NCBI GenBank assembly: GCA_949317995.1
Contig: OX439046.1
Span: forward strand, 40,579,002 to 40,643,001
Length of the DNA: 64,000 nucleotides
From: Acholoe squamosa
Taxonomy: Eukaryota > Annelida > Polychaeta > Phyllodocida > Polynoidae
Direction of reading: 5' to 3'
Positions 18,548 to 64,000 of this stretch are shown here, piece after piece. The translations under genes and the position numbers were made by a program. The first letter of the stretch is position 1. Each line of letters begins with the position of its first letter. The notes under the pieces are model-generated. The model saw only the letters and a program-made list of their open reading frames with translations, had not been told where the DNA came from and did not search any database.

Positions 18548-18552
18548 ATGAT

Positions 18553-20218: not shown

Positions 20219-20260
20219 ACATTCGGCCGCATAGTGCCCTAATTTCTGACATCTAAAGCA
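20219..20260 (-). other. element A Gag CCHC zinc knuckle
   Basis: On the minus strand this codes CFRCQKLGHYAAEC, a perfect C-x2-C-x4-H-x4-C nucleocapsid knuckle, which binds the packaged RNA. It follows the basic nucleocapsid segment 20,670-20,278 and precedes the protease region. A frame change separates it from the segment upstream. Confidence 0.85.
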
Positions 20261-31800: not shown

Positions 31801-32790
31801 TGGTTAGTGTGGTACAGAGAAGGGTGGAGTAGACAGGGGCTGGTATAAGGATGATGAGTCAGAGTGTGGTACAGAAAAGGGCGAAGTAGACAGGAGCTGG
31901 TATAAGGATGGTGAGTGTAGTACAGAGAAGGGTGGAGTAGACAGGGGCTGGTCTAAGGATGGTGAGTGTGGTACAGAGAAGGGTGGAGTAGACCGGAGCT
32001 GGTATAAGGAAGGTAAGTGTGGTACAGAGAAGGGTGGAGTAGACAGGGGCTGTTATAAGGACGGTGAATGTGGTACAGAGAAGGGTGGAGTAGACAGGGG
32101 CTGGTATAAGGACGTTGAGTGTGGTACAGAGAAGGGTGGAGTAGACAGGAGCTGGTATAAGGATGGTTAGTGTGGTACAGAGAAGGGTGAAGTAGACAGG
32201 GGCTGATATAAGGACGTTGAGTGTGGTACAGAGAAGGGTGGAGTAGACAGGAGCTGGTATAAGGATGGTTAGTGTGGTACAGAGAAGGGTGGAGTAGACA
32301 GGGGCTGATATAAGGATGGTTAGTGTGGTACAGAGAAGGGTGGTGTAGACAGGGGCTGGTATAAGGAAGGTGAGTGTGGTACAGAGAAGGGTGGAGTAGA
32401 CAGGGGCTGGTATAAGGATGGTGAGTGTGGTACAGAGAAGGGTGGAGTAGACAGGAGCTGGTATAAGGATGGTTAGTGTGGTACAGAGAAGGGTGGAGTA
32501 GACAGGGGCTGGTATAAGGATTGTGAGTGTGGTACAGAGAACGGTGGAGTAGACAGGGGCTGGTATTAGGATGGTGAGTGTGGTACAGAGAAGGGTGGAG
32601 TAGACCGGAGCTGGTATAAGAAACGTGAGTGTGGTACAGAGAAGGGTGGAGTAGACAGGGGCTGGTATAAGGATGGTGAATGTGGTACAGAGAAGGGTGG
32701 AGTAGACAGGGGCTGGTATAAGGATGGTGAGTGTGGTACAGAGAAGGGTGGAGTAGACAGGGGCTTGTATAAGGACGGTGAGAATGGTAC
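28827..32790. repeat. 51-bp minisatellite, about 78 units over 4 kb
   Basis: The unit starts GGAGTAGACAGGGGCTGGTA and ends GGTACAGAGAAGGGT. Variants (GAGCTGG/GGGCTGG/CAGCTGG; GATGGTTAG/GACGGTGAG/GATGATGAG) occur in recurrent multi-unit orders, and some units carry a 6-bp insertion (GATGAGTCAGAG). The minus strand reads as a 17-residue Ser/Pro/Tyr repeat, but TTAG-containing variants and lack of context argue against coding. Confidence 0.95.
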
Positions 32791-46184: not shown

Positions 46185-46454
46185 TAACTCTGTGGCTGGG
46201 AATAATGCTTCACCTACTACTTGTCTATTTCATAATAGAACACAGACTCCTGTGTCATACCAATTACAGCTACATTGTTTACAATGGCATATACCTATAC
46301 TACGTATATGCTGTGCTATAATGAAAGTAGACTCCCTCACTTTATTTCATGGTAAAATATGGGGAAATGCAATGCGGAATTATCGAACCCCTTCCCTATA
46401 CTACTTACAGCCTGTGTGTTATGATGGGCCCTTCCCTATACTACTTAGTACTTG
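46185..46454. repeat. left remnant of the 38-bp minisatellite interrupted by element C
   Basis: Degenerate units related to the array at 62,739-64,000 end in two clearer units (CCCTTCCCTATACTACTTA) just before the LTR at 46,455. The last four bases CTTG are repeated after the 3' LTR. Confidence 0.7.
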
Positions 46455-46828
46455 TGTCAATGGGGTATTCAAGGTTCATTAATTATTATATGAAATATTT
46501 TAAGCCGAATGATCAAGCTCGCCTATAAGGCTCCCTTACACCAAACCTTTGGATCTGACAGAGCCAGGTATCTCTACCCAACTCTGCCTCTCCTGGCCAG
46601 TGACCTCAGATTCACCTCCGGATCCTGGCTAGGGGTCATGACCTCGACCCCCGCTAAACCCTAGGTACGGGGTGGGAGTGTGCTCACACCCACCTCCGTT
46701 CCTAGCCAATCAGGGATCGAGCTGCTCCTCCAACAGGTGGGCAGCTCGACCCACCTTTAGGCAAGCCCCCTCCCCCCCTCCAGGGTGAGATGATGCAAGG
46801 CACACCGGGTCTTGCCAATCCCTAAGCA

Positions 46829-46859
46829 TGACGTCATGCTTCTCCCAAGACTGACGTCA
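46829..46859 (+). promoter_or_regulatory. two perfect CRE palindromes in the LTR
   Basis: TGACGTCA occurs at 46,829-46,836 and 46,852-46,859, 23 bp apart and about 20-45 bp before the TATA box. This is the consensus CREB/ATF binding site and a typical proximal promoter position, similar in idea to the CRE-like repeats of deltaretroviral LTRs. The same pair lies in the 3' LTR at 62,441-62,471. Activity is inferred. Confidence 0.75.
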
Positions 46860-46879
46860 TGCCTACCCCGAGCTGCTCC

Positions 46880-46888
46880 TATATATAT
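46880..46888 (+). promoter_or_regulatory. LTR TATA box
   Basis: TATATATAT follows the second CRE by about 20 bp and precedes the pyrimidine-rich probable start region by about 25-30 bp. Confidence 0.7.
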
Positions 46889-47127
46889 GAATACAGGACT
46901 AGCTTGGGATACTCTCTCTTATTCTTTACTTTCCTCTCTCCACACCTAGTCTCCATGACACACAGTGCCTTGGTATAGAGCTAGCTTGATCAGGTGGGCA
47001 GCATACACATTGTACTTCACCATGCCAACATGTACCTGCCTAACACTACAATAAAGTGGATTCATCAACTGTACTCTCCGGACTCCTGAGTTGCTCATGT
47101 TCATGACTTGTAACGGTCCGTCGACAA

Positions 47128-47145
47128 TGGTGGAGAAACCCTCTG
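47128..47145 (+). other. presumed primer-binding site
   Basis: TGGTGGAGAAACCCTCTG starts two bases after the LTR. The leading TGG would pair with the CCA end of a tRNA, as in other LTR elements. I cannot say which tRNA. Confidence 0.45.
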
Positions 47146-47176
47146 AAGATTCCATTGTTACCACCTCTCATGAGCC

Positions 47177-47815
47177 ATGAATAAAAGTGAGACAACGCCC
47201 AAAGAGCCAACTCCTGAACGTGCCATTACAACACCGGGACGAGACACGACCCAAAACCAGCTAGCAGCAGCAGCAGCAGCAGAAGCAACACCAAATCAGG
47301 AACCCACCCAGAGAGACTCATCACCTGATGCACTGACTCTAGACCCAATATTACCAGCATCTCTACAAAAATCAACACCTGTGAGTAAAACAAAAACCAC
47401 CTTTTCACCCACTCATATTGGAGACAATACTGGAGGACAGACCAGTACACCAGTGGCATCACCTGCCCCAGAGTTAAATCTAACATTACCTGGCCTGTCT
47501 GCCTCAGACTCTCCATCTTTAAGACTTGCTGGAATACCAGGCAATATTACCACCTCACCTGTGTGCCACACACCGAGCCACCTAGAACTTGACTCCCACC
47601 TGGAAGCCAGATCACCCCACCTACAAGCCGCTTTGGAAAGCATCCCCACTCACCCCGAGCAGCACAATACCAGTACGTCCACGCCACTAGACCAGACCTA
47701 CATGCATCATGTATGTACACCTTCCTCAAAGGCAGAGCTGCTCAATGGTTCTACGCCAACATATTTGATAAACCCATCATCTATGACGCAGAAGCCGTTT
47801 ACACAGCCTTCCTGA
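47177..47815 (+). pseudogene. element C Gag N-terminal region, frame broken before the capsid
   Basis: An ATG 50 bases after the LTR opens a 212-codon frame rich in Pro, Ser and Thr with an Ala run, as in the disordered N-termini of many Gags. It stops at 47,815 without reaching capsid motifs. The capsid-type sequence starts in the -1 frame around 47,713 (frame open from 47,593). The usual N-terminal half of the gypsy capsid domain, about 60-80 residues, seems absent. An internal deletion with frameshift is the simplest reading; programmed frameshifting is possible, but I see no classic slippery heptamer. Confidence 0.6.
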
Positions 47816-48711
47816 AGCGTTTTGGCCAGCTTGACCCTGCAACTATCATTAAAGGGTACAGGACCAGAAAACAGCAACCAAAAGAGTCTGTAGAGGATTA
47901 TATCTCAGACATGACTCTACTGCTGGCCAACAGTAACCTAGATGAATCCGTTCAGGTAGACTACCTGCTAAATGGCCTCAGACCAGAAATCAAAAACGTG
48001 GTTCTGTCCGACACTCCTGAGAAAATAGCTGACGTTGAACGTTTAGCACTCAAGCAGGAGCTGAACATAGAAGCAAACAGCATTGCCCAGGCCTCCAGCC
48101 AATCAGCAGATCTCTGCGCCATGGGCCACAACAACAGCTACAATAATAACAAGAACAACAACACGAAAAATAACTATCAGAGATCCAGAAAGGACAACTA
48201 CCAAAATAACAACCAAAAGAAGGAAGACAGACTCCCCAGTGGTAGCTACAGCAAGCAATATGAAGCCAAGTACAGAAGTGGTTTTAACAGCCAATCTGAC
48301 CCCAACAACAGGAGGACCAGATTTAGAACCCCTTCTGGCGACAGATCCGAGTCTTACAACAGAAACAACCAGCCCTACAACAACAGGGGCACTTCTCCAA
48401 GTAACTACAGGAGATCCCAGTCCAGTGACAGCAACAGGAACGTATTTTTCATCCCTGTGGCCACCACCCCCACTGACAACAATCAAGTTTCCTTCAAGAA
48501 ACTCGTGGTCCCCTCTGATTTCACCATCACTGATGACATATCTCAGGCCAAAAGAAAACCCAGAGACAGAACCCCTGGCAGATACCCTAAAAGGGACCAA
48601 AATAAATACACCTCTGAATCAGAGAGTGAAGCCAACCTCAATAACATGGACAGCAACCCAGAAGAGGATGACCATGAGGAGGATGGCCACGATACAAATG
48701 ACAATGTATAG
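47593..48711 (+). CDS. gag: element C Gag capsid/nucleocapsid part, ending in UAG
   Basis: From 47,713 this frame reads FLKGRAAQWFYANI, the start of the retrotransposon Gag core (LxGxAxxW), then QPKESVEDYISDM and LLNGLRPEIKNVVL, all typical of gypsy capsids. The rest is Asn/Arg/Ser/Gln-rich and basic, replacing the CCHC knuckle, which is absent, and the end is strongly acidic. Gag would assemble the cytoplasmic particle and package RNA. It ends at a TAG (48,709-48,711) in the same frame as pol. The true N-terminus is lost through the frame break upstream. Confidence 0.85.
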   Translation, partial: LPPGSQITPPTSRFGKHPHSPRAAQYQYVHATRPDLHASCMYTFLKGRAAQWFYANIFDKPIIYDAEAVYTAFLKRFGQLDPATIIKGYRTRKQQPKESVEDYISDMTLLLANSNLDESVQVDYLLNGLRPEIKNVVLSDTPEKIADVERLALKQELNIEANSIAQASSQSADLCAMGHNNSYNNNKNNNTKNNYQRSRKDNYQNNNQKKEDRLPSGSYSKQYEAKYRSGFNSQSDPNNRRTRFRTPSGDRSESYNRNNQPYNNRGTSPSNYRRSQSSDSNRNVFFIPVATTPTDNNQVSFKKLVVPSDFTITDDISQAKRKPRDRTPGRYPKRDQNKYTSESESEANLNNMDSNPEEDDHEEDGHDTNDNV

Positions 48712-48748
48712 GTTTCGGGGGAAGGCTACCTTGCACCTAGCAACCCCG
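48709..48748 (+). promoter_or_regulatory. candidate readthrough signal: UAG plus downstream hairpin
   Basis: Gag and Pol are in one frame, interrupted only by TAG at 48,709-48,711, followed by G. After a 4-base spacer, CGGGG (48,716-48,720) can pair with CCCCG (48,744-48,748) and GCTA (48,725-48,728) with TAGC (48,738-48,741), giving a hairpin with a small internal loop. This matches the gammaretroviral strategy, where a fraction of ribosomes read through a UAG under the influence of a downstream structure. Function is inferred. Confidence 0.6.
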
Positions 48749-51700
48749 CCCCCACCTCAGCGAAAAAGAAACCTGGAACGCCCCCCACACGCCATCAACC
48801 TACCGGTGTTCACAGTGATGCAGAACTCAATTCACTACGGCCCCCTACCAGCAAAAACAAAATTAAATTCCAACCAAAGCTGGATTACAGCTCATCTTCA
48901 GACAGTGAGGACTGCTGTGGGGACGACAGCAAGAGGGTGACCAGACTGCGACTCAGGATCAGAACAGATAGGTATGGGCAGCAAGGTAAGGTCTCTTACA
49001 TTAATACTGATTTGACTAAGGGATCTGTGTTTGTCGACATAAATGACCATCTATACAGAGCATTGATAGACTCAGGTGCCTCCCTATCTTTCATCAGTCA
49101 GAAAATGGCAGATAGAGTGTCAAACAGCCCTAACTTCCTTCACGGTAACAGATCCAGACTTGTTGTACTCCTAGCAGACAAATCCTCAGTACAGGTAAAC
49201 AACTCAATAACACTAAAATTCTTGATTCAGGGAGCAGAATTCTCTTGTAAATTCCATATTGTCCCCAAACTGAACCACCCACTCATCCTTGGCGTAAACT
49301 TTATGACCAAATACAAGGCCAGGCTCAGTTTCGGACCAAAACCTCCCATAGGGTACCCAATCAGACCTACTGAAGATTCAATTATCCCACCAAATTCTGA
49401 GGCAACTCTAAATGCCTTTGTAGCTGGGCCACAGGACATTATCAACTCAACAGGCATCACTGAAAACATTGGTCTCAGATTACCAATACTGATCAAACAT
49501 GCCTTGGTTAAACCCAAGACAGAGTCAAAATTAATACCGGTAACTATGGCAAATCCAAATGATTTTCCCGTACCATTGAAAAGACATACCACCCTAGGTA
49601 CCTTCAAGCTTTTCAATATCGAAAAAGCTGTGCCCATAGGTTCCCTTGAAGACCAGCAGCCTTCAAAAAAGGACAGCAGACCTGCCAAAGATCTTTTCCC
49701 AATTAATTGTGGGGATGATCCATTGCAACAGCTCCCTAAAAGCAACGAGCCTCTAAAGTATAAAATCTGTGAGCAGCTCAATGACAAACAGAAGGAGCAA
49801 ATCCGCAATATTGTTGAAGAAAACAGGCAGGCCTTTGTACTTAATGACAGTGCTATCGGTCTAAATGTAGAAAATGAGATCAAACTTGAACTGATCCCAG
49901 ACTTCAAACCCTGTAACAGACCGTCATACAGAATGTCCCCACACAAGGAGATTTTTCAAAGAGAGCTCCTGGAGAAACACCTGAAGCAGGGAGTAATTGA
50001 GGAATGTACAAAGCCTTGTGAGTGGAACTCCCCAGCCTTCTTGGTACCAAAACCCCAAGGTGACAGATCTGTAGCATCAGGATGGAGGATTGTAGTGGAC
50101 TACAGATGGGTTAACCAAAACCTCAAGTCCTTTTCATATTCCTTCCCAAGGGCAGACGATCTCATGCAGCAAATTGGTAGAACAGGCGCCAAGTTTCTCT
50201 CTAAATTAGATGTCTACAGCGCCTACCACCAGATCCCCCTAGCGGAAGAATCCAGACCTATCACCACCTTCTCTGCAAATGGAACCAGATACATGGCAAA
50301 AGTATTGCCCATGGGACTCAAAACATCAGGCCTATCCTTCATGAATGTTATGGAACAGCTGCTCATGAAATGTAAATACAGAAACGCTGTAGCCTACGTC
50401 GATGATGTAGCTATATACAGTCCCACCTGGGAGAGACATCTACAAGATCTAGATGAGGTACTCAAACTTTTCATAAAGGGAAATATCAAACTGAAATCTG
50501 AAAAATGTGAATTTGGCACAACCAAGATGGATTTCTTGGGTTTTTCTGTAGACCAGCATGGTGTGTCACCTTCCCCAGACAAAATCTGGCCAGTCAAAAC
50601 CTTCCCACCACCCAAAAACATCCATGACCTTAGATGTTTCAATGGTATGGCACAATTCTACAAAAGATTCATTAAGGGTTTTGCCCACATAATGAAGCCA
50701 CTCTACGATGCCACCAAGAGTGCTTTTGCATGGACCGCAGACTGTCAAAGAGCCTTTGAGAAAATCAAGGCCTCAATCTGCACGGAAGCCATCCTCAAAT
50801 TCCCTGATTACAGGAAGCCTTTTGTGATTTTCACTGACTCAAGCAATTACAGCCTGGGAGCCGTGATCACTCAGGTTGATGAACATGGTTTCTACAGGCC
50901 AATAGAATTTGCAGGAAGAGGTTTGACCCCTCAAGAAACCAGATACGGTATAACAGACAAGGAACTCTTAGGTATTGTCTATGCGGTAAAGAAATTCCAC
51001 CACTATGTGGATGGAACCCACTTCAAAGTGTATTCAGACCATACAGCCCTAGTCTCTCTTTTTAATAAAAAAGAGAATATCACAAATGGAAGATTGGCTA
51101 GATGGGTGGATACAGTCATGTCATATGATTTTGAAGTAAAGTACCTGCAGGGCAGAGCCAACATTGTGGCTGATTTCCTCTCCAGGAGGAAATACCCACC
51201 AAGCTCTGATGATCCAGTACCAATAAGATCAAAGGGACAGATCATCCTCCCCCCTAAGAAAGTGACTTTCTCTGATATTACCATGACCAAGGTTTTTAAA
51301 TCAAACGCGCCAGTACCAAATAACCCTGTCTTAATGGGACCTCCCAGATCGATACTAAAGGGAGGAAGAATTTGGGGAAGCACAGGAAAATTACCAAGAG
51401 GAGTAGTTGCAAAGAAAAATAGCTCTGAAAGAATATATTCTGAAACACCCAAGGGATATTCAGAGCTATGCGTCTTGACCAGGGCCCAGTCCCGGAACAC
51501 ACAAGACACACCCCCGACCATCGGCCAATCAGAACCCAGCACCAAGCACACCAAGCCGACCCGACCTAAGAAGGTCAAATCCACCACAACTAGGTCAAGG
51601 GGTCGACCCAGTGCGCCCAGGTCACCCAGGGTTTCAGTGAAGGCCGCCAATGCTAGAAGGGTCAAGTTATCTCAGAAGGTTTTACCTATAGCTGAGAGTG

Positions 51701-53208
51701 CCATCACCAAAATTTGCAAACATCACTCCCTCACCCCATCAAGAGAAGCATTAATTGAGGCTCAACAAAAAGACCTTTTTGCCTCATCCATGCTAAATTA
51801 CATTGAAAAAGGTCAATTGCCACATGACTCTGGTTTGATAAATCAGATTCTAAGAAACCATGATCAGTTCATCATTCTTGACGAGGTTCTTTTCAGGATC
51901 ACAGATACTGTAATGGGCCACTCATTGGATCCTACATTACAAATCGTGATCCCAGAAATCTGGGCAGAGTCCCTCATTGAATCCACCCACTGCTCACCTC
52001 TAGGTGGCCACCTGGGTTCAGTGAAAACCTACGCAGCCATAAGGTCACGTTACTACTGGCGCTCAATGTTCAAACAGGTGTTTGATTTTTGTGGCACATG
52101 TCATGCATGCCTCACCACCAAAAAGAAGCCCAAAAATCTCAAAACACCTATGACCCTTCGTGAACCGGTACTGACTGCCTATTCCCATTTAACTATGGAC
52201 ACTATAGGCCCATTCTCCAAGGCTGTAGATGGCTCACACTACATACATGTGGTGACAGACCACGCCACTAGGCACGTCACTGCATGGTCAACTGAGGAAA
52301 ACACAAGCGCCATTGTGGCACTTGGATTCTTCCAAAGAGTCATTTGCATCCACGGTACACCATCAGTACTTAACACTGATAATGCCAAACAATTCACCTC
52401 AAAATTCTTCGCACTTTTCTGCAAGAAATTTGGCATTAAACATGTCACAGGGTCAGCACATTGGAGCCGATCACAAGCTCTATGTGAGCGCCAGCACCAG
52501 ACTATTGAATCCTCCCTGAGAGCTTTTGTGTCAAAATCACAAAAACACTGGTCCACCTTCTTACAGGCTGTAATTTTCAGCATGAACAATACAGTCTCCA
52601 GCGCTCTGGGCTACTCACCAAATCTTTTGGTATTTGGCAAACAATCTCACTTACCAACAGAAGCAGCCCTAGCACTAGGCACATCACTAAGTGATACCAA
52701 ACAAAGGGAAGGTATGGCCCTACATTTGCTCAACCTCAGGGATGATATTCAATTGAAGGCAGCAGAAAACATGATCAAAGTTCACAAAAAGATGAAGGCA
52801 AAACACGACGCCTCAGCAGAACTTAGTACATATGCCACAGGTCAGCTCGTGTATTTACACATTCCCAACCTGCTGGTAAAACACACAAGTAAAAAGCTGC
52901 AGCCTACCTACTCTGGCCCATATATCATCGTGAAAATGACCTCATCAGTAACTGCAATCGTCAAAAGATTGCAGGATGGCAAAGTTTTCAAAAAAGCAGT
53001 ACATGTGTCCAGATTGAGAACACCAACATCCAAAGCCAGCGCCAAAGCCATAGTCAAAAGACTACAGACTGGCCCGGTTTTATCTCTCTACGACCCAGAC
53101 TTGAACTTAACACCTTCCACCAATACCCCCACTCCCCCACCAAAAAGAAAGAGAGGGAGACCAGCCAAAAAGGGTATTGTCAGTTTCTCACCACCAAAAA
53201 AAGGCTAA
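48712..53208 (+). CDS. pol: element C Pol polyprotein (PR-RT-RNase H-IN)
   Basis: Open for 1498 codons after the UAG. Residues are counted from codon 48,937. Protease: ALIDSGASLSFIS (Asp45) and ILGV near 117-120. RT: SKLDVYSAYHQIPL (Asp425) and AYVDDVAIYS (YVDD 487-490). RNase H: FTDSSNYSLG (Asp634) and TDKELLG. Integrase: HCSPLGGHLG and C-x2-C zinc domain, then Asp1088, Asp1148 and Glu1184, a D,D(35)E spacing. The C-terminus has a GPY/F-like YSGPYIIVKM and an AT-hook/NLS-like KRKRGRPAKKG. It makes element cDNA and integrates it. All catalytic residues are present and the frame is unbroken. No ATG opens the frame, consistent with expression as a Gag-Pol readthrough product. Confidence 0.95.
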   Translation, partial: VSGEGYLAPSNPAPTSAKKKPGTPPTRHQPTGVHSDAELNSLRPPTSKNKIKFQPKLDYSSSSDSEDCCGDDSKRVTRLRLRIRTDRYGQQGKVSYINTDLTKGSVFVDINDHLYRALIDSGASLSFISQKMADRVSNSPNFLHGNRSRLVVLLADKSSVQVNNSITLKFLIQGAEFSCKFHIVPKLNHPLILGVNFMTKYKARLSFGPKPPIGYPIRPTEDSIIPPNSEATLNAFVAGPQDIINSTGITENIGLRLPILIKHALVKPKTESKLIPVTMANPNDFPVPLKRHTTLGTFKLFNIEKAVPIGSLEDQQPSKKDSRPAKDLFPINCGDDPLQQLPKSNEPLKYKICEQLNDKQKEQIRNIVEENRQAFVLNDSAIGLNVENEIKLELIPDFKPCNRPSYRMSPHKEIFQRELLEKHLKQGVIEECTKPCEWNSPAFLVPKPQGDRSVASGWRIVVDYRWVNQNLKSFSYSFPRADDLMQQIGRTGAKFLSKLDVYSAYHQIPLAEESRPITTFSANGTRYMAKVLPMGLKTSGLSFMNVMEQLLMKCKYRNAVAYVDDVAIYSPTWERHLQDLDEVLKLFIKGNIKLKSEKCEFGTTKMDFLGFSVDQHGVSPSPDKIWPVKTFPPPKNIHDLRCFNGMAQFYKRFIKGFAHIMKPLYDATKSAFAWTADCQRAFEKIKASICTEAILKFPDYRKPFVIFTDSSNYSLGAVITQVDEHGFYRPIEFAGRGLTPQETRYGITDKELLGIVYAVKKFHHYVDGTHFKVYSDHTALVSLFNKKENITNGRLARWVDTVMSYDFEVKYLQGRANIVADFLSRRKYPPSSDDPVPIRSKGQIILPPKKVTFSDITMTKVFKSNAPVPNNPVLMGPPRSILKGGRIWGSTGKLPRGVVAKKNSSERIYSETPKGYSELCVLTRAQSRNTQDTPPTIGQSEPSTKHTKPTRPKKVKSTTTRSRGRPSAPRSPRVSVKAANARRVKLSQKVLPIAESAITKICKHHSLTPSREALIEAQQKDLFASSMLNYIEKGQLPHDSGLINQILRNHDQFIILDEVLFRITDTVMGHSLDPTLQIVIPEIWAESLIESTHCSPLGGHLGSVKTYAAIRSRYYWRSMFKQVFDFCGTCHACLTTKKKPKNLKTPMTLREPVLTAYSHLTMDTIGPFSKAVDGSHYIHVVTDHATRHVTAWSTEENTSAIVALGFFQRVICIHGTPSVLNTDNAKQFTSKFFALFCKKFGIKHVTGSAHWSRSQALCERQHQTIESSLRAFVSKSQKHWSTFLQAVIFSMNNTVSSALGYSPNLLVFGKQSHLPTEAALALGTSLSDTKQREGMALHLLNLRDDIQLKAAENMIKVHKKMKAKHDASAELSTYATGQLVYLHIPNLLVKHTSKKLQPTYSGPYIIVKMTSSVTAIVKRLQDGKVFKKAVHVSRLRTPTSKASAKAIVKRLQTGPVLSLYDPDLNLTPSTNTPTPPPKRKRGRPAKKGIVSFSPPKKG

Positions 53209-54143
53209 AAAGCGCCATCAGCAAAAATAAATACGCAAACTACACACTCTCACACACCAAAAAGCACAGCCCCCCAAAACACCACAACCAAATACACTGC
53301 AAGTCAAACATACCTCCATCCTATGCACCAGTGATCTGGATAACCACCACGTGCCTACACCTTGATCCCTGATCAAGTGCAGAAATCCGCATCCACCACC
53401 GCCCCCCCCACTTAATTTGCCAAACACATTACCCTCAGAGCACGTACATACCAACCACATTACACCCAGCACCCCACGCGCCACCTGTCCAACACCAAAT
53501 ACTGACCACCTCCCAGAAACCTCCCAACACCCAACCCCCATCCCAGATCTTTTATTTTATTTTTCCTGTTTTCTATTCATCAATTTTTTTCTTTTTCTTT
53601 TTCTTTTTTTCTCAAAAACACCAATACACCCTTTTTCCTTTTTGTCATACGTTGTATGAAAGTTACATAACACTGAAATGAGTCTTGGAGATTTAGTTTT
53701 TCCGCGCCCATGGACGCCTTCAGCACACCCACATTTAATGGTTCGATACGCCACATATACTACCCAAGGCAGCAGCGCATTCTAGGGTATATGTATAAAA
53801 TTTTTATTTTATACATTCATACACCGGCTTGATGGCTTGTCAGGACTCCTGTTAAATTCGGTATTCTTGCCACCGACACGCCTACTGTAGGAGTCCCTGT
53901 CTCCCATGCTCCAACCATGTTTGCACCCCTGTTTTTCTCAGATCCGGTAATGCAGGAGGAATACCTTTCTGATTGGCTGTAATCAACCACAGCCCCAATT
54001 TCACGCCAGGCTTCCACAAAGCAGGCAAACCCACCCGGTCAGAGGTCAATCATAACCTTGACCAGCATCTACCAACCTTCTTGACCTAAAAATTCCAATT
54101 TTTAATCAATACATACCAGGCCTCAGCGCAGAGACCACCAGAG
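53209..54143. other. element C region between pol and the env-position promoter
   Basis: It is A/C-rich near 53,220-53,540 and pyrimidine-rich near 53,545-53,640. An A/T palindrome TATAAAATTTTTATTTTATA lies near 53,793. No credible coding frame is present. It may hold RNA-processing or transport signals, but none is recognisable by eye. Confidence 0.5.
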
Positions 54144-54276
54144 ATTTGCATACGGGGCAGGCCTGCCCCCACTGCATTCATCCAATAAGATAAGGCCAAG
54201 CCTTTTAAGGGCAAGACATACCTATATGGGAGATCTGCGACTGAGGGTTAGCTTCCCTCACGACCAGGTTTATAAG
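54144..54276 (+). promoter_or_regulatory. internal promoter candidate upstream of the env-position gene
   Basis: An octamer ATTTGCAT at 54,144-54,151, CCAAT at 54,182-54,186, GATAAGG at 54,189-54,195 and TATAAG at 54,271-54,276 are in the order and spacing of an RNA polymerase II promoter. Initiation would fall near 54,300, about 70 bases before the ATG at 54,371. Most retroelements express env by splicing from the LTR transcript, so an internal start would be unusual. It could coexist with LTR-driven RNA. Confidence 0.5.
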
Positions 54277-54370
54277 CCTTGACCCACCCCAATCTTATCC
54301 ATTCTTAATAATACACCATCTCCAACCACTTCCCGTTTTTCTGAGAGCAAGTGCCTGATTGGAGACAACC

Positions 54371-54399
54371 ATGGCGAACAGGGCATGCAGCCAGCCCAG
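54371..54399 (+). CDS. env-position gene, exon 1 (start exon)
   Basis: ATG in strong context, nine codons plus two bases, ending CCCAG before the donor GTAGGC at 54,400. Without splicing a TAG follows at 54,401. The 285-base intron 1 ends in TTTCTTTCCAAACCACAG at 54,684. Phase 2 matches exon 2. Confidence 0.55.
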
Positions 54400-55362
54400 G
54401 TAGGCCTGTCTTAAGTGTCCATTTTAGTACATAGACCATCAGTCGTTCTTGTATTTGGTAATGACATATTTGTTGTCATACTGCCCAGACTCCTCAATTC
54501 ACCAATGGTAGTGTGAGCTCAGAGTATCTAGAAAAAGTTGAATGATCTTCACTCTTCACTGCCCAATATTTGTGCCTGCTGAATCCTCCATCTCGTGTGA
54601 ACCTAATATCTCAAATACACTCAACCAAAAACTATTACACAGGTAGACTTACCCTGCAGAATTTGATTTCTTTCCAAACCACAGATTGGATACCATTGAT
54701 TGCTGGACCATACATGACCTATTGGGTCCTGTGGGATTATTGGACGCTGATAGAGAAATCCTTGAATTAAGATCTCTGATCTGCCGGTATAGGAACTTGG
54801 TCCTGGGAATATCTCCCTGTGACGTGGCTTTCTATTTGACAAATCCTGCTGTATTAAAGCAGATGGACTTAACCAATGATCGCGTTCAAGCTGTGATAAA
54901 AACAGTACTCACTATGGTGTGCTCTGACACACCCACTAAACCTATCTGGGCGAGGTTTGACCAGCATGTGGCTAGTTACTTAGCCCTATTGAGCGCAAGG
55001 ACGCTCCTGGCTTCAGAGAAGCCGCTAGCTAACCTGCCTAGACATTTTACAAGTGTAGGCAGAAGTCTAGCAATCAACGATTCGATAGATCTGGTTCTCC
55101 AACAGGCCATCTTTGAATGGTATCACTGGTCAGGCAGGTCCAGATATTTCCGGCTCCAAGTACCCGGCTTAGACTCACGCAGGGGTAAGCTACCTACATT
55201 CACATATTATATTTCTTACAATTATCTTTAACACCTTACTAACCAAGGTCATACAAAGACACCACCCTAACCCACACCCCTGTTTCCTCCAAACCTTTTA
55301 TCTCACCAACACCCCACACATAACCCCCCACACACAAACAAGCACCCAATGCAATACCCCCC

Positions 55363-55393
<31 letters not shown>

Positions 55394-58300
55394 CGCCGCT
55401 CCCTCATGTCTTTTTCAAAATCATTTTTCTAAGACCCTACATATTCTTTAAAATTTTTTTTTTTAGGGCTGCAGTCCTGATGACTACCCTAGCAGCAATC
55501 CTAGCCACAACTGTCGGATTGGTACACCAGGAATCTAACCAAAGGACCATCTTCAGACCAAATTTTGGAGTGATTTTTACAAAAATGGACCAACCCCTCC
55601 TCTCCAACTACATGGATTACCCACTAGTATTAAGCCTAAACCTGACCCTAGACCAGCCCCTCAGAAAACCAGACAATATCTCTCCACTAGTGAAACCCAG
55701 CGCACCCCCATACATAACCCAAACAGCCACAAACTTGGATCACATGTTAGATAACCTTTTCTACAAATCACAGACCCTACTGAATGACCTAATCAAAATT
55801 GTAAGCCCGCCCAGCATGAGATATCCAAGAAATGCCCCAGGCCAGCCCATAGGAGATATCCTGAGAATCCTGGTAGGTTTGGGAACACAGCCTGAAATTG
55901 ATATCCTAAATTCAGAGATGTCAGAGTTGGACAAAAGATTCGCTACCAAAATGCATGTAGTGGAACTAGCCACACATTTCCTTTTAAATATGTCAGAATA
56001 TAATTATCACACACTCACCGCCTTCTCAGAATTCCAAAATGACACAGATGACGCCTTATCACTGTTAGCAAATAGATTTCAAAATTTAGACTCAAATCTT
56101 TCTGACATTTTTCTAAATTTGGAATCACAAACCAAACAGGATACTTTCTACTCAATGCTATTCTTGGCCGCAAATTCACAAATAGAATCACTCATCGATC
56201 TCCATGATGACTTAAGCAACCTATTATCTGCTCTAAATTCACTCATGGAGGGCGAGCTACCCCTCACCCTCATCCCACACGACACATTAGAAATAGGACT
56301 GAATAACCTTTCAGACGCCCTCAGTAGCAACCACCCAGAAATAAATATTCTGAAATTACCGGTAGACTTCTACTACAAAAGGAAAGTTAGAGCACAGTGG
56401 AATGATAATACCACATTACTTATAACCATACCGGTACCCATAGGTCTAGGGGAAAATACCTATTCCATATATAGAACAGAAACCTTCCCCATCCCCTTTG
56501 ATACCTCCAACCCCCACTCAATAGGATACACCCTTTTACAAAAACTACCCCCGTTCATAGCATTACCACCAACACACTCACACTACATTGAGCTACAACA
56601 AGCCGACATGGACCTGTGTACACACGATACCTTTATCAGTTGTGACCGGCCCCTACCTTTGTTATCACCCCTAAACCCCACATGCTCCCTGTCACTACTG
56701 TTAGACACACCAGACGCAGTACACCACACATGCAGCTTTGCTGCACACATGTCCGCCCCCATTCCACGCTTAGTTAAGTCTATATCACACTCAGACTACC
56801 TATTAGTTACCAATGAATCGCCCTCACTTATGCTATGCCCCAATGAAGGCCAAATTGAGCTTAAAAATGCAGCCTCTTCAGTAATATCAGTACCATGCAT
56901 GTGCTCAATTAGAAATGCTGGGATGATAATGATAAATTCAAATCTTTCCTGCATACATAACACCACATTACGGCCCTTCGTCAGGATACCCATCAACCTC
57001 CCTCTATGGCGCCATTTTGGCAACCCACCAGCCAATGTTTCAGGCGTCACCATGACAACCATTCCCCGGACCCTAGATCTACCAAATTTTGAATATCTAA
57101 AACACCTCCACAACCAAAGATTATTGCCCATATTTAAAGAAGTAATAGCCCTCAGGAAAGCCGCCCTGGGTTTGACCAAGTCAAGACCCTTCTTGTCAGT
57201 AAATACATTAATGCATCTTGGCTACCATCTGGAATATTCCCCCTGGTTACATCTTCTGTCCCCGCTACTGGCCATCTTGTGCTGTGCAATCACGTGCCAC
57301 GGTCAGCTGCGCGTGACGAGACTGGCGCAGCTAGTCACCATGCACATTGCGCTGAAGACACCAACCATGGCGGACGCGGCAAAGTTCAACACCTTAAGGA
57401 AGCTAGTGCTGAACATCAGCAGCTTGTGGCCGCCTCAGGCAACAACTTCGCCACATGCAGAAAGCAGCCTGGAGAAATACCAGCCTCCATACCAGGCCGG
57501 CAGGTATGATACCATGTGGGCCTGGATCCTAGTTTTCCTAGCCTTGTACCTGGCCCGCGCCCTGGCCAGGAGATGCTGGCGACACTGGCCCTACCTAGCT
57601 AGAGTGGATGATATCACGGAGATGCCAAAATTCGTCCTCCAAATCCACTCAGAGGGTAGGACCTATGATTTCGTCGTCGGCAGGATGATCTTCGGCAGAA
57701 ACTTGTGGCCTTTCTCCATCATGGCACCCAAGGTGGCTAAGCCCCGGCTAACTAGCCCTTTCGGCCGCCATCTAGAAGTGGAGTGGAAGGGGGAAGTGAC
57801 CTTCATAATCGCCGGAAAGATCAAGCAAGTTAAATTGGAACGTTACCCGAGATGCCCTCTGTTCTGGAGGCTACGGCTACACAAGGCCCTAACATCCAGC
57901 CCCCACGTCTTGACCCTGGTAATCAAGGAAAAGGGACAGCCGGATTTCCAGCTTTCACCATCAGACACTGTCCCAATGCCCCAGCCCTCACCACCCACCA
58001 GATATAGATCCCCTTTTTGCCCCAAAATGGAAGCCCCCTCTACCTCTAGGAGCTTAGTGGAACTCACTAAGTTCACTAACCTGGAGCTACAGCCGGATTC
58101 AGACAAATATCTCTTTGACCCCACCACATCGGATGAAAGGCCCAAAAAGTCATCCCCCAGCGGTAAGTCTATTTATTTTAATTAGAAACACACAGCAAGG
58201 CCACATGTAGGGATCATCAATTGGAAAAAGGCGGCAATTAGGCCACCCCGCACCCTGTTAAGATCATGTAAACAGACCCCGACCCCTCTCCATGAACGAT

Positions 58301-61106
58301 CCACCGGATAGCCCCACCCCTGAGGATATCACCTTTTATGTGGGGATAGGCCCATAAACTACCCAGCCCGGTTACACCGAGCCCCTTGCTTTACACCATC
58401 TTCCCAGGGTCCCCAACCCCACTCAAAGCCCCAACCCCCACCCCCCCCCCCAAGATCAAACTTTCATCTAAGTAACTACTCCAGTAGAGCACGTGTGCAC
58501 TGGCTAACCGTTTGTTGTCAGTATACCCGTTACCATAACAACGGGGGAACCACCCACTCTATTTATAGAACAGGTGTCCCCACACGGTGATGATGGGTGC
58601 TCCGGCGAATTTGGCCACGGCACCGTCCCCCCGATACAGGAGAGCATAACAGATAGAAAGCTCGGGCCCAGGCAGCGGCAAAGCAATCCGAGCTCACTAT
58701 ATCAACTCCCCTGAACCCCAGGAAGCCCAGCATCCCAACCGCCTATATGTGTTTAATTTCAAACTGGCTGAGAGGGCCTATTACATAATCTATGGTAGGT
58801 AAAATTTCGACTCACCATTCCAACATGGCCGAGTTTCGGTTCATGACGGAGACCACCGTCCCAACCCAGCGACTACCGGCCACCCCCACAATCATATAAC
58901 TTTGGACCGTTCCGAGGCTATACCCAAATGTCAGTAGCGTTTGGAAGGTACCATCACACTTATGTGGGGATGGCAGGTAGCCTTTACACATACGCCGCAA
59001 AGACGCTTATGTGGGGATCGCCCCCCCGCCCACCTAGCCTACCCTTTACCCCCCCTCCCCCCCGCCCCACACTGAACCCCCCAACCCCCGAAAGACGCCC
59101 AAAACACACCCACACACAGCCATCATTATCAACACTCAGCTAAAACAGCATGATAACCACAGCTAACCTAACCAACACAATAGATCGGCTTACATTAATG
59201 TTCATCGGCATTAGCACCGGTTGCAGCGTCTGGCCCGACCACTTTCGCGCCATACGCGGCAGCTCGGCGCCATCTTGGTTTTCGTTCCAAACACCGAAAC
59301 TGACGGACGTCACGGCCGTCACCATGACTACCATCGGTCATGTGACACCCGCACGCGGCATCTCTACCACAACAACAACATTAGCACATGTTCAGACTTT
59401 GACTTGCTTAGATCGAACTTACCTCAATAGCCATTGATCGCCCCGCCAGGAGGGATGATCACCCATTGGATCTGCGTGATGCTGAAATACAAATTAAAAG
59501 CCATATTAAACCAAGGCTCCACGTTTTGAATAAGCCAATTCTCAAAATCCATAATCACCCTTGAGGTCAGAAAATACTTACAATCCACCTGACATGGTGA
59601 TAGTGAGGTGCAGAATGGTGCCGTTGGGCATTACCAGCTCGACTTCATACACCTCCATCCTGGTTATGTAACATTATGACATCACAGACGAACGAGCGCC
59701 CCTTTTTATAGCACCTTGGATCAAAAATTTAGCGCGAGGGATAAAATTTTCTTTTTCTTTTTTCTATTTTTCTTTCCTCCGCCCCCCATTTCGACCAAAA
59801 ATAAATTCTCCTTCAAATCATCTCAAACACAATTTCCTTCAAGGCAATCGACACAGGTAGGAGTCGATCTGAGCGGGTCATACCTGTACTTATTCCCCAT
59901 AACTTATTCGACTCCTCGCCATTACGGTGCAGCACCAGCTCACTACCACCACCTGGTGAAACTAAGACAAACTAACCACAGCGTCCCTGGATACAGGACC
60001 CGCGCTAAGCCAAGTGAATAAATTGAGCTCTGCATTCAGGTTTGTACGTTGAAAGGAAAATAACATTAACCTCATGTCCTTTCTCCGTATTGACCGTAGT
60101 CTGTCTGCAACCCAAAACAAACAAACTATAGGTCCATGAACTAAATTATTTTTCCCTAATTTACAGCCACCACCCCACAGTTTTACAATACCAATGCTAC
60201 TGCATCTTGTTTTCATGGTCGACACACGGACAAATTAACCTCTTTGGTCAAATTCGGTATTTTTGTGGACCACCTTGTGAACCATACGTCTTTTAACCTG
60301 TTTCTAACGTCAGACACCCCTCTGTTCTTGTCTCTGTCTGCAGGACCACCGAAGAAGAAGGGCAACAAAGGCAAGCGCGGCCTGGGATCAGATTTGCCTC
60401 CATCTACAGACCCAGGCCAAGCCCCTACAGCAGAAGGTGCCACCAAAGAGTAAGCAGGGCTAGTAAAACCTGCCAAGAAGCCATCCCAACCGGCCCAATA
60501 GACCCAAGGACCCCAAGCAACACCACCAGTCACCCAACAAGCTGCACCGGCAGGTCCTACACTCAAGTAGGTCTTGCAACCAACAGGCCTGGAACCCCAA
60601 TTCCACCAGGCTATGCGGTTTGGAAGGACAGCTACTTCTCCCCCAAGCCTGTACACCCAACCAGGCCACCCACCTTGAACCTGTGTACTTTATGTTCGGA
60701 CGGTCCAGGAACTTTTGCTTGCCCCTGTGCTTATTATCAAAGCCAGGAACAAGCCACAATACACAGTTCACCTTCTTTTACCACCTTCAGGCCCATCGAC
60801 AGAAATTCAAAAAGACACTCTTTCAAGCCAACACCACCACCAAGAAGTAACACGACATTCGACCCACCCCTTGATGACAGCAGCTCATCCTCCTCCTCCT
60901 CAACTTCCCCTGAGGTTGGAGACATGGCTTTCATGGAAGCCTCTTTTTCACAATTTAGAATAGACTCCTTTGATGACGACTACAACATGGAAGCCAAACA
61001 GAGGAGAAAATCAGCTGCTGGAAGACATTTCTGTAGATCCCCCATGGAACACTACAACTTACCACCAAGTAGCATTGGCACGAAATTGAGAAAATTTAAG
61101 TACTAG
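54371..61106 (+). CDS. env-position gene of element C, five predicted exons
   Basis: Predicted exons: 54,371-54,399; 54,685-55,184; 55,475-58,162; 60,344-60,449; and about 60,530 (or 60,554 or 60,587) to 61,106. Introns are GT..AG, and phases agree at every junction (2, 1, 1, 2). The first ATG has context ACCATGG; unspliced, its frame stops after 10 codons. Exon 3 resembles an envelope fusion glycoprotein of baculovirus-F/errantivirus type; exon 2 adds an unknown N-terminal domain and exons 4-5 a long basic, Ser-rich tail. Spliced length would be about 1300 residues, far above the usual 450-700 for such Env proteins. Role in particle release or cell entry is inferred only from layout and position. 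The spliced product has not been verified and is not written out here. Confidence 0.65.
54685..55184 (+). CDS. env-position gene, exon 2 (unknown N-terminal domain)
   Basis: Open throughout in one frame with no internal ATG-led start near its beginning, which supports a splice entry at 54,685. It codes about 166 residues, mixed and helical-looking, with WARFDQHVASYLALLSARTL and no signal peptide or membrane segment. I do not recognise it. The donor GTAAGC at 55,185 is strong; without splicing the frame ends at 55,231. Confidence 0.6.
55465..55482 (+). other. tandem splice acceptors and TGATG stop-start overlap
   Basis: After a T-rich tract, AG occurs at 55,465-55,466 and again at 55,473-55,474. 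The downstream AG keeps exon 2 in frame with exon 3. The upstream AG puts exon 2 on TGA at 55,478-55,480, which overlaps the ATG at 55,480-55,482. That TGATG arrangement permits termination-reinitiation. Either choice could therefore yield the exon 3 product, as a fusion or as a separate protein. Confidence 0.5.
55475..58162 (+). CDS. env-position gene, exon 3 (envelope glycoprotein-like core)
   Basis: Counting from Met at 55,480: a hydrophobic stretch at 1-15 (possible signal or anchor); R-x-x-R at 114-117 (furin-type) followed by a Gly-rich segment 120-136 and then helical, Leu-rich repeats 140-285; the motif LLITIPVPIG near 313-322; cysteines at 380, 388, 402, 418, 453, 473, 475 and 491; about a dozen N-x-S/T sites; a membrane segment near 588-606; a second hydrophobic segment near 680-694; then about 200 residues of basic/Pro-rich cytoplasmic-type tail. 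Cleavage site, helices, Cys-rich head and anchor in this order fit the F/Gypsy-Env group. Two membrane segments and the long tail are unusual. The donor GTAAGT lies at 58,163. Confidence 0.75.
58504..59394 (-). other. possible further antisense exons, uncertain
   Basis: Downstream of the antisense short ORF, minus-strand open blocks end at donor-like sites: a block ending before GTAAGC at 59,193, one ending before GTGAGT at 58,815 (with VGVAGSRWVGTVVSV), and one at 58,690-58,504. AG acceptors precede each, for example TTGTTGTTGTGGTAG near 59,366. Frames do not join unambiguously and the plus strand is also open over 59,150-59,437, so I treat these as candidates for 3' untranslated or alternative exons only. 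Confidence 0.25.
59423..59658 (-). CDS. antisense two-exon short ORF inside intron 3
   Basis: The ATG at 59,658 has an ideal context (ACCAGGATGG). Exon a runs 59,658-59,582 and ends before a perfect donor GTAAGT (59,581-59,576). Exon b starts at 59,481 after GTATTTCAG and reads to a TGA at 59,426-59,424, one base before another GTAAGT donor. Joined, the phases agree and would give 44 residues, hydrophobic and beta-rich, with MEVYEVELVMPNGTILHLTI at its start. Ending a stop next to a further donor suggests continuing non-coding exons. Function unknown; a regulatory antisense product is one possibility. Confidence 0.45.
59702..59710 (-). promoter_or_regulatory. antisense TATA box
   Basis: On the minus strand this reads TATAAAAAG within GCTATAAAAAGGGGCGC, a near-ideal TATA box, 44-52 bases before the antisense ATG. 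A start 25-30 bases downstream would leave a 5' leader of only about 20 bases. GTGATGTCAT, a CRE-like word, lies just after it. Confidence 0.5.
60344..60449 (+). CDS. env-position gene, exon 4 (basic tail)
   Basis: Entry after a strong CTGCAG acceptor, in frame with exon 3. It codes a Lys/Gly-rich segment (PPKKKGNKGKRG) and a Pro/Thr-rich end. The donor GTAAGC at 60,450 overlaps the stop TAA (60,451-60,453), so splicing decides whether the protein ends here or continues into exon 5. Confidence 0.55.
60530..61106 (+). CDS. env-position gene, exon 5 (Cys/Ser-rich C-terminus)
   Basis: A frame open from 60,468 to the TAG at 61,104-61,106 has no ATG before codon 153 or so, so it needs splicing or a frameshift to be used. 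AGs at 60,529, 60,553 and 60,586 all give the right phase from the exon 4 donor; which is used is unclear. It includes a C-x2-C...C-x-C cluster (LCTLCSDGPGTFACPCAYY), a run of eight Ser, and an Arg/Lys end. It could be a cytoplasmic tail binding Gag or host factors, but this is a guess. Confidence 0.5.
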
Positions 61107-62066
61107 GACTGCACATACATGCAAAATTATGAACTTTTATATCTTCCTAATCTGACATTGTAGGGACACAATTTTTCCCACCCCCCACCCATGGGACTCC
61201 CAGAGTCACCAGACGTTTACAAATTTATACGCTGAATGGTTTTCAAGAAAGCTGATATAAAAAGTTCAATCTGTACTGTGAAACATTTAAAACCACATGT
61301 AAGTTTTCTTAACACTAATCCACTCTGTGAGGATACTGAGCGAAATCAGAAACCTAGGTGCCACAGAGCCCCCCCCCAACAAAGTTACCTTTTCTCTTAA
61401 AGGACGATACCATGTTCTTCAAGCCCAAAACAGTTTGCATTTGTATTTATGGGTTTTAGTCTTAGCCAGCATGTTACATTTTTCCTCTGTATTTATTGTA
61501 TTGCAAGATTACTGACCTAGTCAATATCCAGACATGTAGAGGATATATTTTTGAACCATGTATTTTTATACAAACTTGTTAACTATGTACACTTGATCTC
61601 ATACAGGAACCGGTATATGTGACAGAGTATGGCTGCTGTTTCTGCCCTGATTGCTCAAGGCAGGACACAGCAATGAGTATCGCTATTGTCACCAGGATTC
61701 TCGAAGTATTTCTCATCCATGTGTTTTCTCTTGATTTGCATGTATATGTAAGATTTTTATAGCAATTAGCACACAGTAGAGACTGTCACCACAACCTTGT
61801 AGGCCCGACGATATTTTTTGTATGTATTTTTCAAACGAAGCCTGCCTCACTATTGAGGATGTCATTGTTCTTAGAAGTAGACCTATATACACAGTGGATG
61901 ATTCAAGTATGTATGTTAAAATTTTTATACCGGTATTAAGCCAGGTATACACAAGGTTTTGAGTGACCTTATAAATTTTTGCCAAACCTTGAATGCACCA
62001 ATGACGAGTATAAGAACTTTCTCTACCTTTTGCATTCGCGTAGAATCGAATAGGAATGTGGGGATA
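61107..62066 (+). other. element C 3' untranslated region and polypurine tract
   Basis: About 960 bp without a credible frame. The last bases before the 3' LTR, AATAGGAATGTGGGGATA (62,049-62,066), are purine-rich and serve as the likely plus-strand primer tract, though interrupted by T. Confidence 0.55.
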
Positions 62067-62738
62067 TGTCAATGGGGTATTCAAGGTTCATTAATTATTA
62101 TATGAAATATTTTAAGCCGAATGATCAAGCTCGCCTATAAGGCTCCCTTACACCAAACCTTTGGATCTGACAGAGCCAGGTATCTCTACCCAACTCTGCC
62201 TCTCCTGGCCAGTGACCTCAGATTCACCTCCGGATCCTGGCTAGGGGTCATGACCTCGACCCCCGCTAAACCCTAGGTACGGGGTGGGAGTGTGCTCACA
62301 CCCACCTCCGTTCCTAGCCAATCAGGGATCGAGCTGCTCCTCCAACAGGTGGGCAGCTCGACCCACCTTTAGGCAAGCCCCCTCCCCCCCTCCAGGGTGA
62401 GATGATGCAAGGCACACCGGGTCTTGCCAATCCCTAAGCATGACGTCATGCTTCTCCCAAGACTGACGTCATGCCTACCCCGAGCTGCTCCTATATATAT
62501 GAATACAGGACTAGCTTGGGATACTCTCTCTTATTCTTTACTTTCCTCTCTCCACACCTAGTCTCCATGACACACAGTGCCTTGGTATAGAGCTAGCTTG
62601 ATCAGGTGGGCAGCATACACATTGTACTTCACCATGCCAACATGTACCTGCCTAACACTACAATAAAGTGGATTCATCAACTGTACTCTCCGGACTCCTG
62701 AGTTGCTCATGTTCATGACTTGTAACGGTCCGTCGACA
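62067..62738 (+). mobile_element. element C 3' LTR
   Basis: Same length as the 5' LTR and no difference seen by eye. AATAAA at 62,662-62,667 would direct polyadenylation of element transcripts, including the env-position mRNA. Confidence 0.95.
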
Positions 62739-64000
62739 CTTGTGTTATAATGGACCTTTCCCTTTACTACTTACTGCCTGCGTTATAATGAAACATTCTC
62801 TATACTACTTGCTGCCTGTGATATTATTGATTTGAATAAATTTTTATTTAGACTGACAAACAGATACAGGTATCATACGCCTTTCATTGCCGCCAATAGA
62901 CCCTTCCCTATACTACTTACTGCCTGTGGTATAAAGGACCCCTTCCCTATACTACTTACTGCCTGTGTTATAATGGACCCTTCCCTATTCTACTTTATAC
63001 TGCCTGTGTTACAATGGACCCTTCCCTATACTACTTACTGCCTGTGTTATAATGGACCTTTCCCTTTACTACTTACTGCCTGTGTTATAATGGACCCTTC
63101 CCTATACTACTTACTGCCTGTGGTATAATGGACCTTTCCCTTTACTACTTACTGCCTGTGTTATAATAGACCCTTCCCTTTACTACTTACTGCCTGTGTT
63201 ATAATGGACCCTTACCTATACTACTTACTGCCTGCGTTATAATGGAACATTCCCTATACTACTTACTGCCTGTGTTATAATGGACCTTTCCCTTTACTAC
63301 TTACTGCCTGTGTTATAATGGACCCTTCCCTATATTACTTACTGCCTGTGGTATAATGGACCTTTCCCTTTACTTCTTACTGCCTGTGTTATAATAGACC
63401 CTTCCCTTTACTACTTACTGCCTGTGTTATAATGGACCCTTACCTATACTACTTACTGCCTGCGTTATAATGAAACATTCTCTATACTACTTGCTGCCTG
63501 TGATATTATTGATTTGAATAAATTTTTATTTAGACTGACAAACAGATACAGGTATCATACGCCTTTCATTGCCGCCAATAGACCCTTCCCTATACTACTT
63601 ACTGCCTGTGGTATAAAGGACCCCTTCCCTATACTACTTACTGCCTGTGTTATAATGGACCCTTCCCTATTCTACTTTATACTGCCTGTGTTACAATGGA
63701 CCCTTCCCTATACTACTTACTGCCTGTGTTATAATGGACCTTTCCCTTTACTACTTACTGCCTGTGTTATAATGGACCCTTCCCTATACTACTTACTGCC
63801 TGTGGTATAATGGACCTTTCCCTTTACTACTTACTGCCTGTGTTATAATAGACCCTTCCCTTTACTACTTACTGCCTGTGTTATAATGGACCCTTACCTA
63901 TACTACTTACTGCCTGCGTTATAATGGAACATTCTCTATACTACTTGCTGCCTGTGATATTATTGATTTGAATAAATTTTTATTTAGACTGACAAACAGA
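62739..64000. repeat. 38-bp minisatellite with a 682-bp higher-order repeat
   Basis: Units like TGCCTGTGTTATAATGGACC repeat every 38 bp. A non-repeat linker beginning GATTTGAATAAATTTTTATT occurs at 62,829, 63,511 and 63,966, so 62,829 to 63,510 forms a 682-bp higher-order unit and the next is shorter (455 bp). The open frames at 62,832 and 63,514 are identical copies of repeat translation. The array runs off the window. Confidence 0.95.

What the first reader, a model, noticed from the sequence alone, without database searches (positions are those of the whole stretch)
54371..61106. A five-exon env-position gene inside a young LTR retrotransposon
Retroelements usually carry intronless genes because they copy through RNA. 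Here four GT..AG introns with strong signals (GTAGGC/CCACAG, GTAAGC/GCAG, GTAAGT/CTGCAG, GTAAGC/AG) join five open blocks, and the codon phase agrees at each junction. Two blocks (54,685 and 60,468 onward) lack their own ATG, which splicing explains. Introns can survive because the genomic RNA stays unspliced, as in complex retroviruses, but this many in one gene would be unusual.
Basis: partly seen in the sequence, partly recalled or inferred. Interest (0 to 1): 0.88.

Follow-up and report, generated by a model that had tools for sequence, protein, structure and literature searches.

The report
Retroelement genes sharing one start exon
A mobile element related to retroviruses appears to splice one tiny start exon onto three different genes and to keep a fourth, backward-facing gene inside an intron, a style of gene control usually associated with complex retroviruses.

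Summary
The splice-like signals are real, but this is not one five-exon gene. The element (46,455-62,738; identical 672-bp LTRs) is Ty3/Gypsy. Comparison with diverged families in its own genome supports another layout. Exon 1 (54,371-54,399; 9 codons + AG), 100 nt after a conserved TATA box, precedes three acceptors that each need exactly its two left-over bases: exon 2 (54,685; protein X), env (55,467, not 55,475) and exon 4 in a second frame (60,344-61,106; protein Z). X and Z have no ATG near their start; env has none in 12 of 12 family-3 copies examined. In families 2 and 3 exon 2 stops before its donor, so it is not fused to env. X, Env and Z are under purifying selection. Intron 3 also holds an antisense, TATA-preceded, two-exon, 44-codon gene under purifying selection, and three copies of the 10-mer beside the 3' LTR (PPT site). 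Env had no relatives in the protein database.

The parts
46455..47126 (+). 5' LTR (TG..CA), target duplication CTTG at 46,451-46,454
   Evidence: identical to 62,067-62,738 over 672 bp
48712..53208 (+). pol open frame: protease, RT, RNase H, integrase
   Evidence: Pfam matches in this order; frame
54144..54300 (+). putative internal promoter: ATTTGCAT 54,144-54,151, CCAAT 54,182-54,186, TTTATAAGCC from 54,269
   Evidence: conserved in L030-L032, deleted in L029; TATA also before exon 1 in family-1 loci, L035, L037, L041, L049, L050. Motif names recalled
54371..54399 (+). exon 1, shared start exon: ATG, 9 codons + AG, donor GTAGGC
   Evidence: 29 nt in 16 of 20 family-1 loci and in three families; donor best of 24 GT
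54685..55184 (+). exon 2, protein X (no ATG near its start)
   Evidence: 0 of 2000 shuffles open; dN/dS 0-0.18 in 11 copies; 26 of 26 recognised acceptors in phase with exon 1
55467..58162 (+). exon 3, Env: hydrophobic leader, 12 N-glycosylation sequons, RxxR at residue 301, two hydrophobic segments, then a tail of about 200 residues; unspliced stop at 58,183-58,185
   Evidence: ORF; features; dN/dS 0.08-0.12; 17 of 17 recognised acceptors in phase
60344..60453 (+). exon 4 frame A: alternative Env tail (stop 60,451-60,453)
   Evidence: env donor at 58,162 ends in phase 1 and frame A is open from the acceptor in families 1, 2 and 3
60344..61106 (+). exon 4 frame B: protein Z, CxxC...CPC motif, acidic/serine stretch, basic stretch RRK
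   Evidence: 0 of 2000 shuffles; dN/dS 0.13-0.29; 151 matches in own genome; alignment of three families
59582..59658 (-). antisense gene exon a (25 codons + 2 bases), TATAAAAA at 59,703-59,710
   Evidence: window and 16 of 20 family-1 loci; pN/pS 0.22; found by a blind scan
59424..59481 (-). antisense gene exon b, ends in TGA; 100-nt intron 59,482-59,581
   Evidence: window and 13 of 20 family-1 loci; pN/pS 0.13
58338..58347 (+). first internal copy of ATGTGGGGAT (others 58,962-58,971 and 59,009-59,018)
   Evidence: same 10-mer at 62,056-62,065, one base from the 3' LTR; 0.004 expected in the element
62067..62738 (+). 3' LTR; PPT-site 10-mer just before it at 62,056-62,065

Best explanation
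It is the 3' gene cluster of an env-bearing Ty3/Gypsy element that is expressed like a complex retrovirus. A short start exon (54,371-54,399), probably transcribed from an internal TATA promoter, is alternatively spliced to three acceptors that all need its two left-over bases, giving X (exon 2), Env (exon 3) and Z (exon 4, frame B). Env RNA may splice again from 58,162 into exon 4 frame A for a different cytoplasmic tail, so exon 4 is read in two overlapping frames. Full-length RNA stays unspliced as genome and gag-pol message, which is why introns persist. Intron 3 also holds an antisense two-exon gene for a 44-residue protein and three copies of the PPT-site 10-mer, perhaps extra plus-strand primers. 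Shown: sequence, phase, conservation, purifying selection. Inferred: use of the splice sites and promoters, priming, and protein roles (Z as a nuclear regulator or RNA-export factor).
For: 29-nt exon 1 with the same phase in three families. All 26 recognised exon-2 and all 17 recognised env acceptors in phase. Exon 4 opens frame B in phase with exon 1 in 7 of 8 family-2 pieces, L031 and L049. Family-3 env has no ATG before its hydrophobic start in 12 of 12 copies, while 74 of 74 listed family-3 env matches have no stop in the ~490 residues matched. Purifying selection on X, Env and Z. Internal TATA kept at about -100. Antisense gene. 10-mer.
Against: No RNA was available. In the window's family env has its own ATG five codons after the acceptor, and exon 2 is open through its donor and can be joined in frame to 55,475 or to exon 4 frame A. 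Selection in the exon-4 overlap is not clear for frame A (dN/dS 0-2.8). Copies share ancestry, so the counts are not independent. Of L029-L032 only L031 has both exon-4 frames open from the acceptor; L029 has lost the exon-1 donor and L030 the ATG.
Confidence: 0.8

Rival explanations
1. One linear gene: exons 1-2-3-4(-5) joined into a single long protein.
For: In the window's family exon 2 is open through its donor, and exon 2 to 55,475 and exon 3 to 60,344 keep an open phase.
Against: Exon 2 stops 16-25 nt before its donor in families 2 and 3; the env leader would become internal; 55,467 outscores 55,475; intron-4 donor lost in 19 of 20 aligned loci.
Confidence: 0.07
2. Env is made as in Drosophila gypsy: one splice from a 5' leader near the LTR to 55,467, with translation from the env ATG or a leader ATG; exon 1 and internal promoter are used only for X and Z.
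For: GTGAG donors exist near the leader (47,187), and family 1 env has an ATG at 55,480. The pattern is known for gypsy (PMC4276936, passages).
Against: Family-3 env has no ATG at its start (12 of 12 copies), so it needs one from upstream; exon 1 gives the right phase in every family. A leader exon was not tested.
Confidence: 0.3
3. The antisense gene and the 10-mer repeats are regulatory DNA only (promoter or factor-binding sites), not a gene and not primers.
For: The peptide is short and differs greatly between families; the 10-mer contains a T and is no perfect purine run; other intron-3 blocks are conserved without a coding signal.
Against: Third-position bias in two exons in exactly the frames splicing needs, with introns of 100-113 nt; the same donor phase in eight diverged loci; the 10-mer lies at the LTR edge in the window and L031.
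Confidence: 0.2

Closest known systems
Errantiviruses such as Drosophila gypsy
   Same: Ty3/Gypsy pol with an env-position glycoprotein gene made from a spliced RNA (PMC4276936, passages)
   Different: Gypsy is described there with one spliced env RNA and an Env related to baculovirus fusion protein; here three acceptors behind a shared start exon, an antisense gene, and no Pfam match of Env to a known envelope family
Cer1 of C. elegans (CERV)
   Same: Ty3/Gypsy-type element whose third protein comes from a multi-exon spliced RNA; CERV is needed for export of unspliced genomic RNA (PMC10309623, passages)
   Different: CERV shares sequence with GAG and is not an env; no shared start exon, no antisense gene mentioned in the passages seen. 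Sequence was not compared
HTLV-type complex retroviruses
   Same: Env plus extra 3' genes by alternative splicing, overlapping frames in the last exon, antisense gene (PMC3185809, passages)
   Different: Pol here is Ty3/Gypsy; no sequence relation of X, Z or the antisense peptide was found; the antisense promoter lies in an env intron, not in the 3' LTR
Foamy viruses
   Same: An internal promoter serving 3' regulatory genes (PMC3185809, passages)
   Different: The foamy promoter lies near the 3' end of env; here it lies between pol and env
Plant Retand, Grande and RIRE2
   Same: Conserved antisense reading frames between pol and the 3' LTR (PMC7264820, PMC11963269, passages)
   Different: Those antisense ORFs are long (many over 600 bp, TRP28 in Retand) and Retand sense ORFs show no env features; here a 44-codon spliced unit inside an env intron

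Membership tests
Ty3/Gypsy (Metaviridae) | pol order protease-RT-RNase H-integrase | tested here: met
   Pfam matches in that order
Ty3/Gypsy (Metaviridae) | TG..CA LTRs with a 4-6 bp target duplication | tested here: met
   TG..CA, CTTG
Errantivirus | Env related to the baculovirus fusion protein | tested here: inconclusive
   No Pfam match to an envelope family; weak matches only (best DUF4195 E 0.002 in 2 of 15 rows). Fold not obtained
Errantivirus | Env from a spliced RNA | not testable with these tools
   No RNA data; acceptor conserved
Complex retrovirus (Retroviridae) | retroviral RT lineage with tether and second RNase H | not tested
   No tree with Retroviridae was made; Pfam shows a Ty3/Gypsy-like pol
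Complex retrovirus (way of working) | extra 3' genes from alternatively spliced RNAs, overlapping frames | tested here: inconclusive
   Layout and selection support it; no transcripts
Foamy virus-like internal promoter | promoter activity inside the element | not testable with these tools
   conserved TATA, CCAAT and octamer only
Troyka | CG..CG termini, 3-bp duplication, no env | tested here: not met
   TG..CA, 4 bp, env-like ORF; definition from PMC12440569, parts 1-2 of 5
Retand-type antisense ORF | TRP28 domain | not tested
   The antisense peptides were not scanned against Pfam

The most novel reading that the evidence does not exclude
A Ty3/Gypsy lineage independently evolved a full complex-retrovirus expression programme: an internal promoter, one start codon serving X, Env and Z through three phase-locked acceptors, two frames in the last exon, an antisense spliced microprotein gene inside the env intron, and several internal PPT copies for plus-strand priming.
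Probability: 0.55. Interest if true: 0.9.

Novelty: new variant of a known kind. Interest (0 to 1): 0.8.

Why it matters
Complex gene regulation is treated largely as a trait of retroviruses. Finding the same devices in a young Ty3/Gypsy element with many stop-free env copies would suggest they arose more than once and would make their roles testable in another lineage. The shared-start-exon layout explains why simple ORF calling misses genes in such elements, and the antisense gene offers a comparison for HBZ-type regulation.

Tried and rejected
Codon-usage scoring trained on pol and exon 3 did not decide frame B (about -0.07). RNA folding of two intron-3 stretches was unremarkable (z -1.68 and 0.04), so no RRE- or CTE-like element is claimed. 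Protein-database searches with the env ORF and an env alignment found nothing at E 1e-3; pol found relatives, the nearest unnamed ENA proteins at 60-78% over the RT region. Viral contigs gave no relatives for pol, a pol alignment or an X alignment. PDB sequence searches with Env, X and Z gave nothing credible; Pfam gave only weak matches. Structure prediction never ran (ten attempts, queue full). The X search of the genome and the COX1 search for the host did not complete. In one search the rows 'exon3 C 57222' are out of frame by my mistake and are disregarded. The antisense intron lengths printed leave out the five donor bases; I give 100-113 nt. The blind scan also flagged two minus-strand stretches inside exon 3 and one plus-strand stretch at 59,701-59,811, which I take as mirror-frame and alignment artefacts.
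Full report
What the element is. Window 46,455-62,738 is one insertion with identical 672-bp LTRs (TG..CA) and a CTTG target duplication, lying in a 38-bp satellite. Pol (48,712-53,208) has protease, RT, RNase H and integrase in Ty3/Gypsy order; its RT region is 60-78% identical to the five nearest proteins found, all from unnamed ENA contigs. About 8.9 kb lie between pol and the 3' LTR; the finding is there. The genome holding the window is available (1.48 Gb, 63 contigs; no name; an animal by inference). Fifty env matches were scored, a capped list, 40 of 50 without stops; frame B of exon 4 gave 151 matches.

The shared start exon. A 29-nt exon 1 with donor GTAG is present in the window, 16 of 20 family-1 loci, L031, L032, L035, L037, L041, L049 and L050, and 10 of 10 further family-3 pieces. 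Misses: L021, L022, L024, L027 (segment absent or cut); L030 (no ATG); L029 (donor reads CTAGGC); L039 (96% similar but fails the strict pattern); L033, L043, L045, L047 (not found in the piece fetched). Its two left-over bases complete a codon at three acceptors, 54,685, 55,467 and 60,344. Of acceptors the pattern recognised, 26 of 26 (exon 2) and 17 of 17 (env) are in this phase; several of these copies have stops or frameshifts further on. In family 2 the exon-4 acceptor opens frame B in 7 of 8 pieces (L034, L036, L038, L040, L042, L046, L048; not L044) and in L031; L029, L030 and L032 do not show both frames open there. L049 shows both. Env in family 3 has no ATG before its hydrophobic start in L049 and L050 nor in ten more copies (nine by pattern, one read from the printed sequence); L032 lacks it too. 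Its start codon must then come from upstream. With recalled splice matrices 55,467 (11.2) beats 55,475 (9.6), and the donors at 54,400, 55,185 and 58,163 are the best in their regions.

Separate proteins, not one chain. In L031, L032, L047, L035 and L049/L050 the exon-2 frame, or the sequence matching its end, has the stop 16-25 nt before the donor (in L035 the piece ends before the donor). X therefore cannot be fused to env there. Exon 4 is open in two frames: frame A after the phase-1 donors (env at 58,162; in family 1 also exon 2), frame B after exon 1. Frame B is open for 253 codons, in 0 of 2000 shuffles.

Selection. Against the window, in 11 family-1 copies, dN/dS was 0-0.18 for exon 2, 0.08-0.12 for exon 3 and 0.13-0.29 for frame B outside the overlap; shifted frames gave 0.46-2.1 or undefined (exon 2) and 0.94-8.4 (frame B). 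In the overlap frame B gave 0.49-0.76 (one undefined) and frame A 0-2.8, so frame A is not shown to be constrained by this test. A few copies carry stops (exon 2: one in L012; exon 3: one in L023, two in L024). Exons 1 and 2 have almost no indels in complete copies; introns vary more. Z keeps C114, C117, C126, C128, FRP, RRK and LPP in the six rows aligned.

Internal promoter. Pieces of the non-coding stretch 53,736-54,570 stay 67-88% identical to the family-2-type loci. It holds ATTTGCAT, CCAAT and TTTATAAGCC about 100 nt before the ATG (motif names recalled). Its activity is inferred.

Antisense gene. On the minus strand of intron 3 lie TATAAAAA, ATG at 59,658, 25 codons plus two bases, a GTAAG donor, an intron (100-113 nt among copies) and a second exon ending in TGA. 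Exon a was found in the window and 16 of 20 family-1 loci, exon b in the window and 13 of 20. Among ten distinct sequences each, changes at codon positions 1/2/3 are 207/47/418 and 82/42/278, pN/pS 0.22 and 0.13; other frames gave 1.1-4.1 (pairwise counts, not independent). In L030, L031, L034, L036, L038, L044, L048 and L049 a TATAAAAG is followed by an ATG and a donor in the same phase. L040 has only a shorter frame; L029 has the TATA alone; none was found in L032, L042 or L046.

PPT-like copies. ATGTGGGGAT occurs four times on the + strand of the element, three in intron 3 and one a single base from the 3' LTR; 0.004 expected by composition. Its 9-base core also occurs once in pol (49,708). 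Two or more cores are kept in the 3' stretches of 19 of 20 family-1 loci (none in L027); L049 has two, L031 one in intron 3 and one at its LTR-like edge. Extra plus-strand priming, as with lentiviral central PPTs (recalled), is an inference.

Comparison. Spliced env in gypsy, a multi-exon third gene in Cer1, antisense ORFs in plant elements and the mixture in complex retroviruses are known (passages of PMC4276936, PMC10309623, PMC7264820, PMC11963269, PMC3185809 and PMC5408684; parts 1-2 of 5 of PMC12440569). I saw no paper describing this combination in a Ty3/Gypsy element in the listings, which cover open-licence PMC papers only. Every splicing and promoter claim here rests on conservation, not on RNA.

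Noticed in passing
47,174-48,711: gag of the window copy lies in two overlapping frames; three related copies (L051-L053) match it only from about 47,675 on, and in them a frame of 500 or more residues covers that part, so this copy seems altered in gag although its LTRs are identical.
   Followed up: partly
58,940-59,020 and 59,300-59,380: Blocks of intron 3 97-99% conserved among eight family-1 loci; the first holds two of the PPT-like 10-mers, the second has no known role.
   Followed up: partly
L018 and L019: Mosaic copies: intron 1 100% and exon 2 99% identical to the window, yet 84-90% in parts of intron 3, suggesting recombination between subfamilies.
   Followed up: no
G000 C14:17,230,371-17,238,604: Four frame-B copies in tandem about 2,567 bp apart, each with one TGA: the 3' region seems to have become a tandem array.
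   Followed up: no
10,313-16,053, minus strand: The same pair of frames (274 and 493 aa) occurs twice, 3,990 bp apart; the first copy has no Pfam match.
   Followed up: no
17,416-22,499, minus strand: Remnants of another retroelement: protease-like and weak integrase-like matches.
   Followed up: no
28,001-34,000: Strong G-over-C skew, up to +0.73, unexplained.
   Followed up: no
62,741-64,000: 38-bp satellite with a 682-bp higher-order repeat flanking the 3' LTR.
   Followed up: no
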